Below the pieces are notes generated by a model. That model had not been told where the DNA came from. It made no database searches and was given only the letters and a program-made list of their open reading frames with translations. From assembly GCA_030753015.1 (NCBI GenBank), contig JASMDC010000012.1:1-64000 (forward strand): a DNA stretch of 64,000 nucleotides. Direction: 5' to 3'. The DNA comes from Candidatus Undinarchaeales archaeon. Its GTDB lineage: Archaea > SpSt-1190 > JASMDC01. Shown here in pieces: positions 19,797 to 39,430 of this stretch; position 1 is the stretch's first letter; the number at the start of each line of letters is the position of its first letter. A program made the position numbers and the translations under genes.

Positions 19797-19898
19797 ATGG
19801 TGCGCTCGGTTCCTCTATTTTAAAGCTGTTTCGCCGGGCCGTGGCCCGGTAGGGAAAACCTATTTCAATACAGTATCCTTGTGGTGACTTGGAGCCGA

Positions 19899-20759
19899 AT
19901 GATACTCGATGTCATTGAATACACGGACCCGTACTGTACCTGGTGCTGGGGTTCCGAACCCATCCTACGAAAGATCCAAGAGGTCTACGGGGAACAGGTC
20001 CGGATCGGTTTCAGGATGGGGGGGCTCGTAAAGGACATAGGGCAGTTCTTCGACCCGGCCAATCGCATCGGTGGGAAGGACTGGTACAAGCAGGTCGCCG
20101 AGCACTGGCTGGAGGCATCCTCACGCCACGGGATGCCGGTCGATCCTGAGATATTCTTCGACATCAAGGATGAGGTGTTCTCCACTTATCCGGCGAACAT
20201 CGCCTACAAGTCCGCCGAGATGCAGGACGAGAGGTTGGCGAAGAGGTTCCTGAGGCGGATGCGTGAAGCTGCCTCCGCCGAGCGACGGGCGATCCATCGT
20301 TTGGATATGCAGGCGGACCTGGCGGAGGAGGTCGGACTCGACCGCGACCGGTTCCTGGAGGACATCAACAACGGCCAAGCGGAAGGTGCGTTCAAAAAAG
20401 ACCTTGCGGAATGCAGGTCGATGGGTGTCAGTGGTTTCCCCACCTTTCTCATTAGGAACCAGAAGGGCGAACGGATACTCCTTCATGGATACGTGTCGTT
20501 CGGGTCCTTCGAGGCGGCTTTCACCAAGCTTGCAGACGACACCCTGAAGCCACGAACGATAGTGCTGACTGAGCAGACCGTTCTCGACCTCGTTCGCAGG
20601 TACGGGAAGGTGGCCCCGAGGGAGGTAGGCGAGGTCTTCGACATCACGATGGAGGCCGCGACTGGACGGCTCGAGCTGTTGAGGGAACGAGGGCTGCTGG
20701 CAGAACAAAAGGCAGGGAACGGCGTCTTCTATTCGGTGCCAGAGGATCTGGAAGAATAA
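19899..20759 (+). CDS. DsbA/FrnE-family thiol oxidoreductase with C-terminal extension
   Basis: The product has 286 residues from ATG 19899, chosen because GGAG sits four bases upstream; the ORF track's GTG at 19881 is less likely. The active site is YCTWCWG near residue 12, a FrnE-like CxxC. The thioredoxin cis-Pro loop is GVSGFPTFLI at about residue 180. The last about 70 residues (TVLDLVRRYGKV...ELLRERGLL) look like a winged helix added to the thioredoxin fold. No signal peptide, so cytoplasmic. Probable role in thiol-disulfide exchange, possibly redox sensing. Confidence 0.8.
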   Translation: MILDVIEYTDPYCTWCWGSEPILRKIQEVYGEQVRIGFRMGGLVKDIGQFFDPANRIGGKDWYKQVAEHWLEASSRHGMPVDPEIFFDIKDEVFSTYPANIAYKSAEMQDERLAKRFLRRMREAASAERRAIHRLDMQADLAEEVGLDRDRFLEDINNGQAEGAFKKDLAECRSMGVSGFPTFLIRNQKGERILLHGYVSFGSFEAAFTKLADDTLKPRTIVLTEQTVLDLVRRYGKVAPREVGEVFDITMEAATGRLELLRERGLLAEQKAGNGVFYSVPEDLEE

Positions 20760-20819: not shown

Positions 20820-21128
20820 TCACGAGGAGTCAGGTATGCAACAAGCGAACATATCGTTCACGTCATAGAAGATATTGGAGAATTCCTTGCTCGCCTCTTT
20901 CAGCTCATCCTCCCCCTTCTTTGTCAGCGTGTAGGCCTTCTTCTTGTTTGCCTCGATGAGGCCCTTCTCCCTCAGCGTCTTCAGGGCAGGATAGAGGGTT
21001 CCGGGGCTCGGCTTGATCCCCCGCCGATTCTCCAGGTCCCGGGCGATCTCGGCACCTGTCATGCTCTCCTTGCTGAGGTTCCAGAGGATGAGGTAGGACA
21101 GGAAGCCCTTCATGTTGCAGCATTCCAT
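20820..21128 (-). CDS. PadR-family transcriptional regulator
   Basis: The product is 102 residues from ATG 21128. The longer track ORF runs through the promoter region. The winged-helix signature is ESMTGAEIARDLENRRG, then KPSPGTLYPALKTLREKGLI and AYTLTKKGEDEL, diagnostic of PadR. Cys residues flank the domain (MECCNM at the start, FACCIPDSS at the end), which could sense metal or redox state. The gene faces a small Cys-rich protein gene, and the space between holds a perfect 16-bp palindrome, so it probably represses both. Confidence 0.9.
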   Translation of the reverse strand: MECCNMKGFLSYLILWNLSKESMTGAEIARDLENRRGIKPSPGTLYPALKTLREKGLIEANKKKAYTLTKKGEDELKEASKEFSNIFYDVNDMFACCIPDSS

Positions 21129-21136
21129 ACCAATAT

Positions 21137-21154
21137 TATCAGACAACCGAGATA
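21137..21154. promoter_or_regulatory. Degenerate copy of the PadR-type operator
   Basis: TATCAGACAACCGAGATA keeps the TATC and ACCGA elements of the perfect palindrome downstream, with mismatches. It overlaps the predicted promoter of the PadR gene, consistent with autoregulation. Confidence 0.35.
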
Positions 21155-21184
21155 AAAACATTCCCGTTCCCGAGGACGAGTAGA

Positions 21185-21200
21185 TATCGGTTAACCGATA
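21185..21200. promoter_or_regulatory. Perfect 16-bp palindrome, probable PadR operator
   Basis: TATCGGTTAACCGATA is a perfect inverted repeat in the divergent intergenic region. It lies immediately upstream of the TATA-like ACTATTTATG (21201-21210) of the small Cys-rich gene. Half-sites recur at 21215-21220 and 21237-21244. Confidence 0.7.
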
Positions 21201-21229
21201 ACTATTTATGGAAGTATCGGGTATAAGAT

Positions 21230-21245
21230 ATTGGATAACCGATAA
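21230..21245. promoter_or_regulatory. Second, imperfect PadR-type operator
   Basis: ATTGGATAACCGATAA repeats the right half (AACCGATA) of the perfect palindrome exactly. It sits between the TATA-like element and the start codon of the small Cys-rich gene, where a bound repressor would block transcription. Confidence 0.5.
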
Positions 21246-21255
21246 AGTGGTGAAC

Positions 21256-21387
21256 ATGATGACCTGCAAGATATTGTGCGACGACAAGGAGATCGCGACC
21301 TTCGACTGTACCGCTGACGGGTGCAACATCCAGTTTACGGATGAGGGAAAGGACCTGTGCAAGGACGGCTCCAAGGGATGTTGCTGA
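21256..21387 (+). CDS. 43-residue cysteine-rich small protein (metal-binding candidate)
   Basis: This frame is below the ORF-track cutoff. ATG 21256 (or ATG 21259) to TGA 21385-21387 encodes 43 residues with seven Cys, including MMTCKILCDD, DCTADGCN and a terminal GCC. It has TATA and palindromic operators upstream, is divergent from a PadR regulator and is followed by a pyrimidine tract (CCCTTCCTTTCTT) suitable for archaeal termination. The composition suggests a soluble metal- or thiol-binding peptide. No family was recognised; function is inferred from Cys density and regulation. Confidence 0.65.
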   Translation: MMTCKILCDDKEIATFDCTADGCNIQFTDEGKDLCKDGSKGCC

Positions 21388-21669
21388 GCAGCGTCCCTTC
21401 CTTTCTTCCGACAACATAGGGGGTGATGGGAACAGGGTGATCAACGAATGATGAGACGTCAGTCGAAGAGACTGAGAGGAGGGGGGGGGTTCACGGGATG
21501 GGCTCCATCCTATTCCTCCCCTCGCCGTTGTGAAGAGTTTTTTTCAAGTTACGTAAAACCATCGATATTGACGGGAGCTGAGATGCACATAGCCGTCCGT
21601 GCCAACGTCCAACCTACAGACCCGGGTGATCCTGAACGCGATCGGGAGGATTGACCCGATATCTGGCGC
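21388..21669. other. Intergenic stretch without a supported gene
   Basis: No convincing coding frame was found. The ORF-track entry at 21448 has unusual composition and no start context. The stretch contains a pyrimidine tract right after the small Cys-rich gene, a G-run (GGAGGGGGGGG near 21480) and a T-run (near 21537-21545), any of which could end transcription. Confidence 0.4.
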
Positions 21670-22308
21670 TCAACCTTCCACGAGATGGACCAGCACGCCC
21701 AGGGCGATCAGCACGATCCCTGTGATGAGGCGCTCGTGCTCCTCCAGGAAATGCCATTCTATCCTCTCCATCCCGCTCAAGGCCAGGTTCACCATCAGGA
21801 CCAATCCCAGGACCGTAACGATCAGATAGATCACTGAGACCATGACGATGCCTGGCCAGCCACCGGTACTGGCCAGAAAGAAGTAGGAGACCATGGCGAT
21901 GCACGGGGAGAAGAACAGCGCTGTGGCCAGGGGGATCGCGATGGCGAACCGTGATCGTTCTGAATATGCATCGGTGTCGACGGGTCCCTCGTGGCCGTGG
22001 TGATCGTGGCCTCTGAAGTCCAGGGCCACGTAGACAAGTCCCACGGCGATCAGGACGAGTGGGGCGGCGACGCCCATGATGAACTCGTGGGTCGAGGAGA
22101 GAGTATGGCCGACGACCCCGATGAGGACACCGACCAGGATCGTACTCACAGTGTGCGGGATGGCGATGAGGGCTGCGATCCAGGAGCTTTCTGCGCGGGT
22201 CCATCCCTCGGCCCTGCTGATCATGACCAGGGGGATCCAGTGATCGGGCATCAATGCATGGTTCACGCTCAGGGCAAGGGCCCCGATCGCAAGTTGGATC
22301 ATGTCCAT
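21670..22308 (-). CDS. UreH/NiCoT-like metal transporter membrane protein
   Basis: The product is 212 residues from ATG 22308, chosen because GAGGAGAG lies just upstream; the track's 22398 start is longer. There are about six hydrophobic segments. The first contains NHALMPDHWIPL, resembling the HAxxxDH metal-recognition motif of Ni/Co transporters and UreH-type proteins. A His-rich loop (GHDHHGHEG) separates the two halves. Predicted to move a transition metal across the membrane. Its closeness to the PadR/Cys-rich peptide pair may mark a metal-response region, but direction and metal are unknown. Confidence 0.65.
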   Translation of the reverse strand: MDMIQLAIGALALSVNHALMPDHWIPLVMISRAEGWTRAESSWIAALIAIPHTVSTILVGVLIGVVGHTLSSTHEFIMGVAAPLVLIAVGLVYVALDFRGHDHHGHEGPVDTDAYSERSRFAIAIPLATALFFSPCIAMVSYFFLASTGGWPGIVMVSVIYLIVTVLGLVLMVNLALSGMERIEWHFLEEHERLITGIVLIALGVLVHLVEG

Positions 22309-22420
22309 CCTTCGCTCTCCTCTCTGAAGCCTGGTTTCATTGGTAGGTTGTGACCGGAAAATCTTCAGGGCATAAGAGATTAATAGACAGTGCACCACTC
22401 CCGGCCCAGAGGTGCATCAC

Positions 22421-24402: not shown

Positions 24403-25590
24403 CTATTTTCGCAGGCTCTCTACCGGGTGGAGCTGGGCCGCCTGGTAGGCGGGCAACACCCCCGACATGCTGCCGGTGAGGAACGAGAACCCAAGTGCCG
24501 TGCCGATGAGCCCTGGTGTGATGTAGAGGTGCAGTGAGAAGCCTCCGGCCTGGGCCGCCGCTTGGGCGACGAGGGCGAACGAAAGCCCCACACCCACTCC
24601 CAAAAGCCCTCCCACGAGCCCCAGCAGCCCCGACTCGATGAGGAAGATGGCGAGGATGTCGCCGTTGCGGGCGCCCACGGCCTTGAGGATACCGATCTCC
24701 CGCTGACGCTCCATCACCGAGGTGTACATGGTGTTCATGATGCCGATGCACCCCACTACCAGGGCGATGGAGGCCACCCCGATGAACAGCACCTGGACGG
24801 CGAGCATGATCCCCGATACCAGGTTTATCATCTGGGTGGCAGTCTGGACCGAGAAGTCGGCCTGGCCCCGGTGGTCCTCCAGCTCCTCCTTGATGTCCTC
24901 GGCGACTTTGGTTGGATCGAGACCTGGGCGGACGATGGCCACCATCATGGACACCTCCTCGGGCTTGTCCATAAGCTCCCGCACCATGTCCTTGTTCACG
25001 AAGATCTGGGCGTCGTCATTGGAGTTCCCCTTGCTCTTGAGCGCTCCCACGACCTTGAACCTGTGGCCCTCCAACACCAGGCTCCCCCGCACGGGAACGG
25101 GCTTGGCGAAGATCTTCTCGGCGATGCGGTAGCCGATGACGATGTTGGAGCGGTCGGTAGGCTTGAGCGTGCGCCCCCCGGCCAGCTCGGACCCCTGGCC
25201 TTCGAAGAAGAAGTCCATGTCCTTCGCGTCGATGCCCATGAGGTAGCCGATGTACTTCTCCTGGCCGTACTCGATGGTGACCGTGCCCGAGAGCATGGCC
25301 ATCACCCGGTCAACTCCGCGGACCCGCTCCACCACCTTGGCGTCGCGCTCGGTGAGGGTTCCCGCGGAAACCCCGAAGCTCCCCATCCCCCCCTCGCCAG
25401 TGAGGATCATGATGAAGCCGGTCCCCATGCGCTCGAACTCGTCGTTAAAGTAGCCCTCCAGCCCCTTGGTGATGGAGATGAGGCTCACCACCGCAGCCAC
25501 GGCGATGAAAACCCCCAGGATGGTCAGCCAGGAGCGCAGCCCCCGTCTGGCCAGGTTCCGTACCGCGATGATGAAGTATTCGCCGATCAT
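24403..25590 (-). CDS. MacB-type ABC transporter permease (copy 1)
   Basis: The product has 395 residues. The layout is that of MacB/FtsX permeases: one N-terminal helix (SWLTILGVFIAVAAVVSLIS), a large extracellular domain (about 45-270), then three C-terminal helices including YTSVMERQREIGILKAVGA. It is a close paralog of the 26176-27363 gene and more distant from the two 399-residue copies. It lies directly downstream of a tiny membrane-protein gene. It works with the MacB-type ATPase at 31800. The exported substrate or signal is unknown. Confidence 0.92.
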   Translation of the reverse strand: MIGEYFIIAVRNLARRGLRSWLTILGVFIAVAAVVSLISITKGLEGYFNDEFERMGTGFIMILTGEGGMGSFGVSAGTLTERDAKVVERVRGVDRVMAMLSGTVTIEYGQEKYIGYLMGIDAKDMDFFFEGQGSELAGGRTLKPTDRSNIVIGYRIAEKIFAKPVPVRGSLVLEGHRFKVVGALKSKGNSNDDAQIFVNKDMVRELMDKPEEVSMMVAIVRPGLDPTKVAEDIKEELEDHRGQADFSVQTATQMINLVSGIMLAVQVLFIGVASIALVVGCIGIMNTMYTSVMERQREIGILKAVGARNGDILAIFLIESGLLGLVGGLLGVGVGLSFALVAQAAAQAGGFSLHLYITPGLIGTALGFSFLTGSMSGVLPAYQAAQLHPVESLRK

Positions 25591-25611
25591 TGAAGTCCTC
25601 TGTCGAGGGTA

Positions 25612-25872
25612 CTAATCCTCACCGAACATGTGCTTCAGCGGCCGGATGTAGAGTACCAGCGCCAGAACGATGAACGCCCACCAGTAGGGCAGGACCCAGT
25701 CGGCGAAGTAAGCACCAACAGGCACCCCGATAAAGAACCCGCCCTTCCCGATGAACCGGATGTCGATGAAGTCCAGCTTACTTGCTTTATAGTCCAACCA
25801 CTCGTGCCAGCCCATGTCCTTGGGCTTCTTCTTCGTGGGTTCGCTCGATTCGTTGGTTTCTTCTTCTGCCAT
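25612..25872 (-). CDS. Tiny two-span membrane protein (copy A), ABC-cluster accessory
   Basis: The product has 86 residues. It begins with a charged, Lys-rich tail (EPTKKKPKDMGWHEWLDYKA), then two hydrophobic segments, then the ending IRPLKHMFGED. It is a clear paralog of the next gene upstream (25902-26156): DMGWHEWLD and IRPLKHMFG are shared almost exactly. I know no family for it. Its position between two MacB-type permeases suggests a dedicated accessory subunit. The conserved WHEWLD and RPLKHMFG ends probably face the cytoplasm. Confidence 0.8.
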   Translation of the reverse strand: MAEEETNESSEPTKKKPKDMGWHEWLDYKASKLDFIDIRFIGKGGFFIGVPVGAYFADWVLPYWWAFIVLALVLYIRPLKHMFGED

Positions 25873-25901
25873 GGAGTATCACCTTTACGGGCGGAGTGTC
25901 C

Positions 25902-26156
25902 TTACCCGAACATATGCTTGAGCGGCCTGATGTAGCAGAGCAGCGCCAGGACGACGATGGGTATCCAGTAGGGCGTGATGTAGCCGGGGAAGTGCGCCCC
26001 TATCACGAGCCCGAACAGCAACCCGATATTCCCGATGAGCTTCACGTCCACGTAGTCGAGTTTCGTCACCTTGAAGTCCAGCCACTCATGCCAGCCCATG
26101 TCCTTGGGATCCTTTCCCTTGGGTGTGCTTTCATCTTTCGTATCTTCTTCAGCCAT
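25902..26156 (-). CDS. Tiny two-span membrane protein (copy B), ABC-cluster accessory
   Basis: The product has 84 residues, paralogous to 25612-25872, with the same DMGWHEWLD and IRPLKHMFG boxes and a more divergent hydrophobic core. It sits 20 bases downstream of a MacB-type permease and 30 bases upstream of copy A. The permease, small, small, permease arrangement suggests each permease pairs with one small protein. No known domain was recognised. Confidence 0.8.
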   Translation of the reverse strand: MAEEDTKDESTPKGKDPKDMGWHEWLDFKVTKLDYVDVKLIGNIGLLFGLVIGAHFPGYITPYWIPIVVLALLCYIRPLKHMFG

Positions 26157-26175
26157 GATGGATCATCTCCTTTCG

Positions 26176-27363
26176 CTACTTTCTGAGGCTCTCCACGGGG
26201 TGGAGCTGGGCTGCCTGCCACGCGGGCATTACCCCCGACAGGCTGCCGGTGAGGAACGAGAACCCAAGTGCTGTGCCGATGAGACCGGGTGTGATGTAGA
26301 GGTGGAGGATGAAGCCGGCGGCCCCGGCCCCCGCCTGGGCGAGGAGGGCGAACGAAAGCCCCACGCCCACTCCTAAAAGCCCCCCCACGAGGCCCAGAAG
26401 GCCCGACTCGATGAGGAAGATGGCGAGGATGTCGCCGTTGCGGGCGCCCACCGCCTTGAGTATGCCGATCTCCCGCTGGCGCTCCATCACCGAAGTGTAC
26501 ATGGTGTTCATGATGCCGATGCCGCCGACTACCAGTGCGATGGAGGCAACGCCAACGAACAACACCTGGATGGCGAGCATGATCCCCCCCATCAGGTCCA
26601 TCATCTGGTTGGCGGTCTGGACCGAGAAGTCCGCCTGGCCCCGGAAGTCCTCCAGCTCCTCCTTGATGTCCTCGGCCACCTTGGCCGGATCGAGCCCCGG
26701 ACGGACAATGGCTATCATATTGGACACCTCCTCGGGCTTGTCCATAAGCTCCCGCGCCATGTCCTTGGTGATGTAGAGTTGGGAGTCGTCCTGGGAGTTG
26801 CCCATGCTCTCGAGGATCCCGACGACCTTGAAACGGTGGCCATCCACGACCAGGTTCCCTCGCAGGGGCACGGGCTTGTCGAAGTAGCCATTGGCTATCC
26901 TGGAGCCGATGACTATGTTGGAGCGGTCGGCGGGATTGAGCATCCGTCCCGCCGACACATCAATACCCATTCGGTGGAAGAAGAACCCTATGTCCTTTGG
27001 GGAGACGCCGATGATGAAGGTGACGTACTTCTCCTGGCCGTACTCGATGGTGGTGGCGCCCGAGAGCATGCTCATAGTCCGGTCCACGCCCCGAACCCGG
27101 TCCACCACCTTGGCGTCCCGCTCGGTGAGGGCTCCAGCAGAGACCCCGAAGCTCCCCATCCCCCCCTCGCCGGTGAGGATCATGACCATGTCGGTGCCCA
27201 TGCGCTCGAACTGCTCGTTCATGTAGCCCTCCAGCCCCTTGGTGATGGAGATGAGGCTCACAACAGCCGCCACGGCGATGAACACCCCCAGGACGGTCAG
27301 CCAGGAGCGAAGCCCCCGCCGGGTCAGGTTCCGTACCGCGATTATGAAGTATTCGCCGATCAT
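26176..27363 (-). CDS. MacB-type ABC transporter permease (copy 2)
   Basis: The product has 395 residues and is almost superimposable on copy 1: same length, same N-terminus (MIGEYFIIAVRNL) and the identical block SVMERQREIGILKAVGARNG. One N-terminal helix, a periplasmic-type domain and three C-terminal helices. The strong similarity suggests a recent duplication together with the mini membrane gene. Same operon and ATPase as the other permeases. Confidence 0.92.
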   Translation of the reverse strand: MIGEYFIIAVRNLTRRGLRSWLTVLGVFIAVAAVVSLISITKGLEGYMNEQFERMGTDMVMILTGEGGMGSFGVSAGALTERDAKVVDRVRGVDRTMSMLSGATTIEYGQEKYVTFIIGVSPKDIGFFFHRMGIDVSAGRMLNPADRSNIVIGSRIANGYFDKPVPLRGNLVVDGHRFKVVGILESMGNSQDDSQLYITKDMARELMDKPEEVSNMIAIVRPGLDPAKVAEDIKEELEDFRGQADFSVQTANQMMDLMGGIMLAIQVLFVGVASIALVVGGIGIMNTMYTSVMERQREIGILKAVGARNGDILAIFLIESGLLGLVGGLLGVGVGLSFALLAQAGAGAAGFILHLYITPGLIGTALGFSFLTGSLSGVMPAWQAAQLHPVESLRK

Positions 27364-27372
27364 GGTATCACC

Positions 27373-28572
27373 TCACTCGTACCTCAACGCCTCCACGGGA
27401 TGGAGGTTGGCCGCCTGCAGAGCCGGGAGCACCCCCGAGATGCTCCCCACCAGGAAGGAGAATCCGATGGCCCCCACCCACAGGTGGATCCCCAGGTCGG
27501 GCTGCATGGCCGGGATGCCCGCTGCGGTGGCCCCTATACCCATGAGCAGCCCCAGACCGGCGCCCACTATGCATCCCAGGATGCCGCCCACGGTGCCCAG
27601 CATCCCCGACTCGATGAGAAAGATCGCGAGGATGTCCCCGTTGCGCGCCCCCACGGCCTTGAGTATACCGATCTCCGGGGTGCGCTCCAGAACGGATGTG
27701 TACATGGTGTTCATGATACCGATGCCGCCCACCACCAGGGAGATGGCGGCCATCCCCACGATCAGGCCCTGGATGGCCAGCATGGCAGCACCCGCCATCT
27801 CCGCCATGCCGGCCATGGTGTTGACCGCAAAATCCTCCTTGCCCCTGGAGTCCTCCAGCTCCTCCTTGACCTCGTCGGCCACCTTCTGCGGGTCGAATCC
27901 CTTCTTGGGCCTCACGTAGAACATGGACACCTCGTCCCCCACGCCCAGGACCTCCTTGCCCTTCTTCCAGGGGACGAAGAAGTTGGAGTTGTCCTGCTCG
28001 TTCCCGAAGTCCTCCATGACCCCCACCACGGTGAAGGTGTGGCCGCGGACGTCGACCTTGCTGCGCAGGCGGACGGGCTTGTCGAACTTGTCCCGGGTGT
28101 ACGCAACACCCACGACGGCCGCGTCGCGGTCCGATCTCAGAAAGTCCCTGCCCTGCTCCACCTCGAACCCGAACATCCTCTCGATGACGCCGTCCATGAG
28201 ATGGTTGGGGGTGATCACGAGGTAGCCCCGGGTTTCCTGCCCGCTGCGCTCGAAGGTCACCACGGTGAAGATGAAGGGCGCCACCGAGTCCACCCCGCGC
28301 ACACGCTCGATGACCTTCTGATCCTTTGAGGTCATGGGCTCGATGGCCATGCCCCCCGCGCCCATGGTGCCGCCCACACCGGGCAGGACCATGATCAGGT
28401 CGTACCCGACCTTCGAGTACATCTCGTCCATGTATTTCTGGAGCCCGGCGCCCATGGACATGAGCGCCACCACGGAGGCGATGCCGATGAAGATTCCCAG
28501 CACGGTGAGGAAGGACCGGGTCCCGCGACTGCGCAGGTTCCGGAACGCGATGCGGAAGTAATCTGCGATCAT
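27373..28572 (-). CDS. MacB-type ABC transporter permease (copy 3)
   Basis: The product has 399 residues. The N-terminal RNLRSRGTRSFLTVLGIFIG helix, extracellular domain and C-terminal helices follow the MacB pattern, with GGIGIMNTMYTSVLER before the third-last helix. It is most similar to copy 4 (28582-29781). The cluster therefore holds two pairs of permease paralogs. The gene follows copy 4 after nine bases. Confidence 0.92.
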   Translation of the reverse strand: MIADYFRIAFRNLRSRGTRSFLTVLGIFIGIASVVALMSMGAGLQKYMDEMYSKVGYDLIMVLPGVGGTMGAGGMAIEPMTSKDQKVIERVRGVDSVAPFIFTVVTFERSGQETRGYLVITPNHLMDGVIERMFGFEVEQGRDFLRSDRDAAVVGVAYTRDKFDKPVRLRSKVDVRGHTFTVVGVMEDFGNEQDNSNFFVPWKKGKEVLGVGDEVSMFYVRPKKGFDPQKVADEVKEELEDSRGKEDFAVNTMAGMAEMAGAAMLAIQGLIVGMAAISLVVGGIGIMNTMYTSVLERTPEIGILKAVGARNGDILAIFLIESGMLGTVGGILGCIVGAGLGLLMGIGATAAGIPAMQPDLGIHLWVGAIGFSFLVGSISGVLPALQAANLHPVEALRYE

Positions 28573-39277: not shown

Positions 39278-39371
39278 GGGGACATAGTGTAGCTAGGCAG
39301 CACGGTGGGCTCCAGAATCCATTCACGGCTGTGGAAACCCGCAAACTAGGGTTCAAATCCCTATGTCCCCA
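39278..39371 (+). tRNA. tRNA-Trp (CCA) with a 21-nt intron
   Basis: The acceptor stem GGGGACA/TGTCCCC is perfect. The anticodon stem is GTGGG (39305-39309) with CCCGC (39338-39342). The mature loop is CTCCAG-A, anticodon CCA. A 21-base insert (39316-39336) between positions 37 and 38 contains TGGA, which can pair with TCCA of the anticodon region to form a bulge-helix-bulge type splicing substrate. T arm is TAGGG-TTCAAAT-CCCTA. CCA is not encoded. Confidence 0.93.
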
Positions 39372-39430
39372 CTCCTTCACCCTTCCCTGTCCGAACACTT
39401 TTTAACGCTTCAGGCTTTCGTCCAGCGCCC

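What the first reader, a model, noticed from the sequence alone, without database searches (positions are those of the whole stretch)
20820..21387. PadR regulator facing a 43-residue seven-cysteine peptide across a perfect palindrome
The intergenic region holds TATCGGTTAACCGATA plus further half-sites around a TATA box, and the small gene lies below normal ORF cutoffs. PadR itself ends and begins with CC pairs. A predicted metal transporter is encoded downstream. Together this looks like a metal- or thiol-responsive switch with a metallothionein-like effector.
Basis: partly seen in the sequence, partly recalled or inferred. Interest (0 to 1): 0.68.

Follow-up and report, generated by a model that had tools for sequence, protein, structure and literature searches.

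The report
Archaeal PadR switch for cysteine-rich miniprotein
A small repressor gene and a 43-residue cysteine-rich protein gene face each other across a conserved four-site DNA switch that recurs in many archaea, where close relatives of the repressor instead control an arsenic-methylating enzyme, so this is probably a little-known archaeal defence switch against arsenic or other chemicals that attack thiols.

Summary
PadR (20820-21128, -) and a 43-aa, seven-cysteine gene (21256-21387, +) are divergent across four operator copies of TATCGGTTATCCGATA; in the 3.85-Mb genome the only cluster of such sites is here. The peptide is real: homologues (24-57% identity) lie divergent to orthologous PadRs in 18 of 80 archaeal loci, under purifying selection. 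Searching with the peptide alone found three more copies, all beside the PadR. The operator occurs upstream of 70 of 80 related PadRs, with a shared 14/30/44-nt spacing. This PadR branch is cysteine-rich (mean 4.4 versus 0.5 in other archaeal PadRs). Its divergent partner comes in three kinds: this peptide, another small Cys-rich protein (often followed by nitroreductase or flavin-reductase genes), or arsenite methyltransferase ArsM (16 of 80, plus 4 in a second sample). Best explanation: an autorepressing thiol-sensing PadR, released by a thiol-reactive soft metal(loid), As(III) favoured, inducing a thiol-rich binding/buffer miniprotein. The switch is well supported; inducer and peptide chemistry are inferred. 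The 'metal transporter' is convergent, not part of the unit; 'metallothionein' is not shown. No description of this system was found in the papers searched.

The parts
20820..21128 (-). PadR-family repressor, 102 aa, Cys-rich branch (CC at residues 3-4 and 96-97)
   Evidence: Pfam PF03551 53.4 bits; predicted structure pLDDT 85.7 matching PadR-family crystal structures; orthologues L049-L128; tree
21256..21387 (+). 43-aa seven-cysteine miniprotein gene (unnamed family)
   Evidence: homologues at 18 of 80 related loci, three more found by the peptide alone; dN/dS about 0.07-0.4 in close pairs; predicted beta-beta-beta-alpha fold, pLDDT 81
21185..21200 (.). O1, perfect palindrome TATCGGTTAACCGATA, between the two promoters
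   Evidence: conserved motif
21229..21244 (.). O2, TATTGGATAACCGATA, at the expected transcription start of the peptide gene
   Evidence: start position inferred from the TATA-like box
21215..21230 (.). O2', weaker copy TATCGGGTATAAGATA, 14 nt from O2; the 14-nt spacing is conserved
21137..21152 (.). O3, degenerate copy TCTCGGTTGTCTGATA (minus strand), next to the PadR start
   Evidence: position -24 from the PadR start, as in many relatives
21202..21211 (+). TATA-like box CTATTTATGG of the peptide gene, directly beside O1
   Evidence: sequence; consensus reading only
21373..21402 (+). hairpin overlapping the peptide's stop codon, followed by a T-rich stretch: probable terminator
   Evidence: RNA fold z = -3.75; the same layout in most relatives

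Best explanation
A local, autoregulated stress switch. A PadR dimer sits on four 16-bp sites that overlap the promoters of both genes and represses itself and the divergent gene. Its cysteine clusters (N-terminal CC, C-terminal CC and, in most relatives, a Cys in the last long helix) sense a thiol-reactive soft metal or metalloid, most likely As(III). Binding releases DNA and induces a small, folded, thiol-rich protein that binds or buffers the agent. Other archaea use the same repressor and operator to drive ArsM or a second type of Cys-rich small protein. Shown by computation: the pair, the operator, its architecture, coding selection, Cys enrichment and the ArsM association. Inferred: repression, the inducer, and what the peptide binds.
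For: Operator upstream of 70 of 80 related PadRs: 153 sites at <=3 mismatches in 81 upstream regions against 0.15 in shuffled ones, and only 6 sites in the other ~440 kb. Four-site 14/30/44-48-nt layout shared by the window and loci from other phyla. Operator cluster unique in its genome, so PadR acts only here. Peptide conserved and divergent to PadR; the association holds when searched from the peptide. dN/dS 0.07-0.4. PadR branch has mean 4.4 Cys against 0.52 in 25 other archaeal PadRs. ArsM, over the NCBIfam cut-off in all four members tested, is the divergent gene at 17 loci of this branch, 16 of 17 with the 88/50-spaced Cys triad, and again in 3 further genomes. One arsM locus (L051, PadR 62% identical by alignment, 66% by tblastn) lies inside the window's own well-supported 39-row branch. 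A thioredoxin-like gene adjoins arsM in L006. Precedent: CgArsR binds As(III) with Cys15-Cys16 of one subunit and Cys55 of the other (PMC11868830).
Against: No arsenic gene lies beside the window's own pair; the genome's ArsM and Acr3 are on other contigs and the operator scan found no site there. No locus was found with both peptide and arsM. Class B loci are followed by nitroreductase or flavin-reductase genes, which points to electrophile or redox stress. Neither PadR CC pair is universal. Peptide Cys positions vary, and its CC codons lie in a terminator hairpin, so their conservation is partly confounded.
Confidence: 0.5

Rival explanations
1. Redox/electrophile switch: the PadR cysteines form disulfides or are alkylated (oxidant, quinone, nitro-compound), and the peptide is a thiol antioxidant or disulfide sink. 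No metal is involved.
For: At class B loci the Cys-rich gene is followed by nitroreductase (about a dozen loci), flavin reductase, pirin-like or rhodanese-like genes; nitroreductase and flavin reductase also follow the peptide in L064 and L061. RosR, a PadR-type archaeal regulator of the same fold, is an oxidative-stress regulator (PMC9426492).
Against: ArsM as recurrent partner is not explained by oxidants alone. Adjacent CC pairs and His replacing Cys at the N-terminus in L059 (FKHHMKG) fit metal ligation better than disulfide switching.
Confidence: 0.25
2. Switch for a different soft metal (Cu(I), Cd(II), Hg(II), Zn(II)), with the peptide as a true metal-storage miniprotein.
For: Rv3488, a PadR with solved structures, is a fold match and a weak profile match, and is reported as cadmium-binding (own knowledge). 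One class A locus (L059) lies beside a copper-type P-type ATPase with a GMHCASC domain.
Against: That ATPase is convergent and occurs in one class A locus only. Score against the Rv3488 family model is 33 bits, cut-off 140. ArsM is the only recurrent metal(loid) enzyme among the clusters examined.
Confidence: 0.12
3. The peptide is not an effector but a co-regulator: a small thiol protein that binds PadR and tunes or resets repression (negative feedback).
For: In this genome the peptide is the only gene besides PadR under the operator; it is small, folded and always tied to PadR; it usually ends in its own terminator.
Against: Where arsM replaces it the divergent gene is an enzyme, so the divergent slot is an output slot. 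Class B partners often head an operon with enzymes.
Confidence: 0.1
4. Ordinary PadR autoregulation with a chance open reading frame beside it.
For: Short ORF below gene-calling limits; no family match.
Against: Homologues at many loci with purifying selection and a predicted fold.
Confidence: 0.01

Closest known systems
PadR family, LmrR/Rv3488-type small PadRs (PF03551)
   Same: winged-helix fold plus C-terminal helix (Foldseek to 4esf, 6abt, 3elk, LmrR, Rv3488); small divergent repressor overlapping its own promoter
   Different: Cys-rich with CC motifs; palindrome TATCGGTTATCCGATA in a four-site array; partners are a Cys-rich miniprotein or ArsM, not a drug exporter or phenolic acid decarboxylase
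ArsR/SmtB As(III) repressors (for example CgArsR)
   Same: small winged-helix repressor with a CC pair; partner can be ArsM; a composite three-Cys site is plausible
   Different: not homologous as a family: PadR profile and PadR helix layout; inducer untested
RosR (Halobacterium; PadR-type)
   Same: archaeal PadR-type regulator of a stress response; structural match
   Different: haloarchaeal oxidative-stress factor whose sensing residues are reported as not identifiable (PMC9426492); no divergent Cys-rich partner known to me
Thiol-based archaeal regulators OxsR, SurR, MsvR
   Same: archaeal repressors or activators working through cysteines (PMC9426492)
   Different: TrmB and ArsR families, not PadR
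Metallothioneins and small thiol buffers
   Same: short, Cys-rich, predicted stress-induced
   Different: predicted secondary structure without metal, fewer and mobile cysteines, no sequence family match
DUF5320-like Cys-rich small proteins (class B partners)
   Same: occupy the same divergent slot under the same operator
   Different: unrelated sequence: Cys-rich N-terminus plus FLTKEEKIEMLKEYKxxLExExKG helix

Membership tests
PadR (PF03551) | profile match over the curated cut-off | tested here: met
   53.4 bits against 27
PadR (PF03551) | winged-helix plus C-terminal dimerisation helix fold | tested here: met
   pLDDT 85.7; Foldseek prob 1.00 to many PadR structures
PadR (PF03551) | binds an inverted-repeat operator at its own promoter | tested here: inconclusive
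   conserved palindromic array at the right place; binding itself not testable here
Rv3488-type PadR (NF053635) | score over the equivalog cut-off | tested here: not met
   33.3 bits against 140
ArsR/SmtB | ArsR-type HTH profile | tested here: not met
   best matches are PadR; no ArsR-family profile among the hits of the 102-aa protein apart from NF033789 (SdpR) at 14.7 bits, cut-off 100
ArsR/SmtB (works like) | three-Cys As(III) site and derepression by As(III) | not testable with these tools
   Cys pairs present; needs biochemistry
Metallothionein | match to a known metallothionein family | tested here: not met
   no Pfam or NCBIfam match at E 0.1
Metallothionein | metal-thiolate clusters, no stable fold without metal | tested here: inconclusive
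   predicted beta-beta-beta-alpha fold, pLDDT 81; metal binding not testable
ArsM (partner in relatives) | NF008823 over the cut-off and conserved Cys triad | tested here: met
   four tested at 317-345 bits against 263; 88/50-spaced Cys triad in 16 of 17

The most novel reading that the evidence does not exclude
A pan-archaeal arsenic (thiol-poison) response in which a cysteine-rich PadR takes the place of ArsR, with one operator code driving interchangeable outputs: ArsM, or two unrelated families of Cys-rich miniproteins, the 43-aa beta-beta-beta-alpha peptide being a new class of metalloid-binding protein.
Probability: 0.35. Interest if true: 0.75.

Novelty: new variant of a known kind. Interest (0 to 1): 0.62.

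Why it matters
If true, many archaea (DPANN lineages, methanogens, Methanoperedens, Bathyarchaeota, Asgard archaea) share an undescribed stress regulon with a readable 16-bp operator. The operator makes the regulon searchable in any archaeal genome and gives functions to several tiny, usually unannotated genes. It would also be a thiol-sensing PadR in archaea, where the source read here lists thiol switches only in the ArsR and TrmB families.

Tried and rejected
Single-peptide search of 120 relatives gave only chance-level hits; the profile search later succeeded. Viral contigs could not be searched with the peptide or its alignment (too short or not conserved enough). Foldseek with the peptide model found no match at E<=0.001. 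RiPP precursor considered and rejected: no modifying-enzyme family recurs beside the peptide. Metal transporter as part of the unit rejected (convergent; its motif found beside no other locus of the branch). Wider regulon in this genome rejected. Paper searches for PadR with arsenite, arsM, cadmium, Cys-rich proteins and DUF5320 found no description; the library is open-access only. I first thought the L050 stop codon had a compensated terminator hairpin; the fold does not support it.

Full report
What is there. On the minus strand at 20820-21128 lies a 102-aa PadR-family regulator, MECCNMKGFLSYLILW...FYDVNDMFACCIPDSS (Pfam PF03551, 53.4 bits against a cut-off of 27). On the plus strand at 21256-21387 lies a 43-codon gene with seven cysteines (positions 4, 8, 18, 23, 35, 42, 43). 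The 127-bp intergenic region is AT-rich (39% GC in a 60.5% GC window). It carries one perfect palindrome, TATCGGTTAACCGATA (21185-21200), and three weaker copies at 21137, 21215 and 21229. The exception is the transporter: it is convergent on the other strand (21670-22398), and the peptide ends in a probable terminator.

Is it more than chance? One perfect 16-nt palindrome is expected about once in 64 kb, and the window has exactly one. The multiplicity and the relatives decide. At <=3 mismatches the window has 6 strand-hits against 0.29 in shuffles. The complete 3.85-Mb bin has no second cluster; its remaining hits are five singletons, close to the four hits of the reversed control pattern. 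This PadR therefore appears to control only itself and the peptide in this genome.

Relatives of the PadR. A scan of 84,980 species genomes with a five-sequence PadR alignment returned 365 relatives; the best 80, all archaeal, were kept. Six-frame profile search of these loci found a homologue of the 43-aa peptide at 18 of them, divergent to PadR. Hosts are Micrarchaeota, Ca. Iainarchaeum, Woesearchaeota, other DPANN archaea, Methanobacteriaceae, Methanoperedenaceae and Methanomicrobiales. The majority consensus is MKxKECKIVCDGKEVATxxCTxxGxxIKCTEEGKKxCKxxxKGCC. Searching 394 archaeal genomes with the peptide profile alone, blind to PadR, gave three further true hits (L146, L147, L148). Each has the PadR divergent and the operator between; in L147 the PadR is cut by the contig end. 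Close pairs show dN/dS of roughly 0.07-0.4, so it is a real protein gene.

The operator. In 230 bp upstream of the 80 PadRs, 70 have at least one site at <=3 mismatches; the remaining ~440 kb of the same loci have six, which I take to belong to loci where the two genes have moved apart (L058 is an example). Counting the window, 153 sites are seen against 0.15 in shuffled sequence. Spacings are quantised: 14, 30 and 42-44 nt dominate. The window's layout (14, 30, 48; PadR-proximal site at -24) matches, for example, L061 and L063 (14, 30, 44), L072 and L074 (14, 31, 42) and L079 (14, 28, 44), which carry different partner genes and come from different phyla. O1 abuts the TATA-like box of the peptide, O2 falls at its expected start and O3 at the start of PadR. 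That is the layout of a repressor blocking TBP/TFB or polymerase (inference from archaeal promoter structure).

Partner classes. Among the 80 loci the divergent gene is the peptide (class A, 18), a Cys-rich N-terminus fused to a DUF5320-like helical segment (class B, 34), or arsenite methyltransferase (class C, 16); 12 are unassigned. L006 from another search is also class C. Four ArsM representatives score 317-345 bits against the NCBIfam cut-off of 263, and 16 of 17 carry the 88/50-spaced cysteine triad, which I recognise from the ArsM literature. A second sample of 30 PadR loci from genomes without names gave class B 13, class C 4 (three in new genomes), class A 3 including the window, and 10 unassigned, mostly low-scoring. 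In the PadR tree 16 of the 17 class C rows fall in one supported branch. L051 (Theionarchaea) falls in the well-supported 39-row branch that holds all class A rows (97/90), so arsM was paired with this kind of PadR at least twice, or class A descends from arsM-paired ancestors. Downstream of class B genes, and twice of class A genes (L061, L064), sit flavin reductases or nitroreductases.

Cysteines of the PadR. The branch averages 4.4 Cys per protein against 0.52 in 25 other archaeal PadR homologues found by the same query. Three elements recur: an N-terminal CC before M[KR]G, a Cys in the long last helix (FC), and a C-terminal CC. In class A each element can be lost, but every sequence keeps at least two of the three or a remnant of them; sequences are related, so this is suggestive only. 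In L059 the N-terminal pair is replaced by His (FKHHMKG). CgArsR offers a precedent for an As(III) site made of an adjacent CC pair of one subunit and a Cys of the other (PMC11868830). That these elements meet in the PadR dimer is inference; the N-terminal residues have low model confidence.

The peptide. AlphaFold2 with 18 homologues gives beta-beta-beta-alpha, mean pLDDT 81, with a disordered CC tail. No solved structure matches, and no Pfam or NCBIfam family. Cys42, Cys43 and Cys35 are the most conserved (16, 15 and 14 of 18), Cys4 and Cys8 are in 10, and Cys23 is peculiar to the window. The terminal CC codons form the 5' arm of a hairpin over the stop codon (z = -3.75 in the window, -3.99 in L062, -3.39 in L053; not in L050). 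Their conservation may therefore partly reflect a terminator.

Mechanism. Best: thiol-sensing autorepressor, induced by a soft metal(loid) with As(III) favoured, driving a thiol-rich binding or buffer protein. Local regulation, operator and pairing are well supported (I would put about 0.9 on 'PadR binds these sites and controls the peptide'). A thiol-reactive inducer is likely (about 0.75); As(III) specifically about 0.45. The genome does encode ArsM (239.6 bits, just under the cut-off, Cys motifs intact by eye) and Acr3 (395.8 bits), but the operator scan found no site at either, so arsenic is plausible in its biology without being tied to this pair.

Comparison and novelty. By profile and fold it is a PadR. 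It is not an Rv3488 equivalog (33 of 140 bits) and not an ArsR family member, though it may work like one. PMC9426492 says RosR's oxidant-sensing residues are not identifiable and lists archaeal thiol-switch regulators in the ArsR and TrmB families only. No paper in the library links PadR to arsenite, arsM, DUF5320 or a Cys-rich miniprotein in archaea. I therefore rate it a new variant of a known kind. The pair as such is ordinary in layout; the unusual part is the three interchangeable outputs behind one operator and the unnamed miniprotein family.

Noticed in passing
window 19881-20759 (+): DsbA/FrnE-like thioredoxin-fold protein (PF13743, PF01323) with a C-terminal winged-helix segment (weak ArsR-type match at residues 234-287), convergent with PadR; a possible redox-linked regulator fusion.
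   Followed up: partly
window 21670-22398 (-): Polytopic membrane protein with an HALMPDH motif (NicO/UreH-like) and a His-rich loop; no Pfam or NCBIfam match at E 0.1. Convergent with the peptide gene.
   Followed up: partly
L049-L068, stop codon of the peptide gene: The hairpin overlaps the stop codon, with the CC codons in the 5' arm and a T-run after it: coding and termination signals superimposed in most class A loci.
   Followed up: partly
L069-L126 (class B): Unnamed small proteins with a CC/CGC-rich N-terminus plus FLTKEEKIEMLKEYKxxLExExKGVxERI (DUF5320-like C-terminus) behind the same operator, often heading an operon with nitroreductase, pirin-like or flavin-reductase genes.
   Followed up: partly
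L051, L100, L104, L108-L110, L113, L114, L116, L117, L119-L121, L124, L125, L127, L164, L167, L170: Archaeal arsM genes divergent to a Cys-rich PadR (extra CCPE motif before CCDMRG in several), suggesting PadR-controlled arsenic methylation in Asgard archaea, Bathyarchaeota and Methanomethylicota.
   Followed up: partly
L160: Two operator pairs about 700 bp apart, with the class B gene displaced from PadR: an insertion between repressor and target with operators kept at both sides. L058 shows a displaced peptide with its own operators.
   Followed up: no
window 24403-28572 (-): Three consecutive MacB-like ABC permease paralogues (395, 395 and 399 aa) interspersed with two 84-86 aa membrane proteins.
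   Followed up: no
window 39278-39372 (+): ARAGORN calls a tRNA with a four-base anticodon (ccag); undetermined type, perhaps an intron-containing or false call.
   Followed up: no
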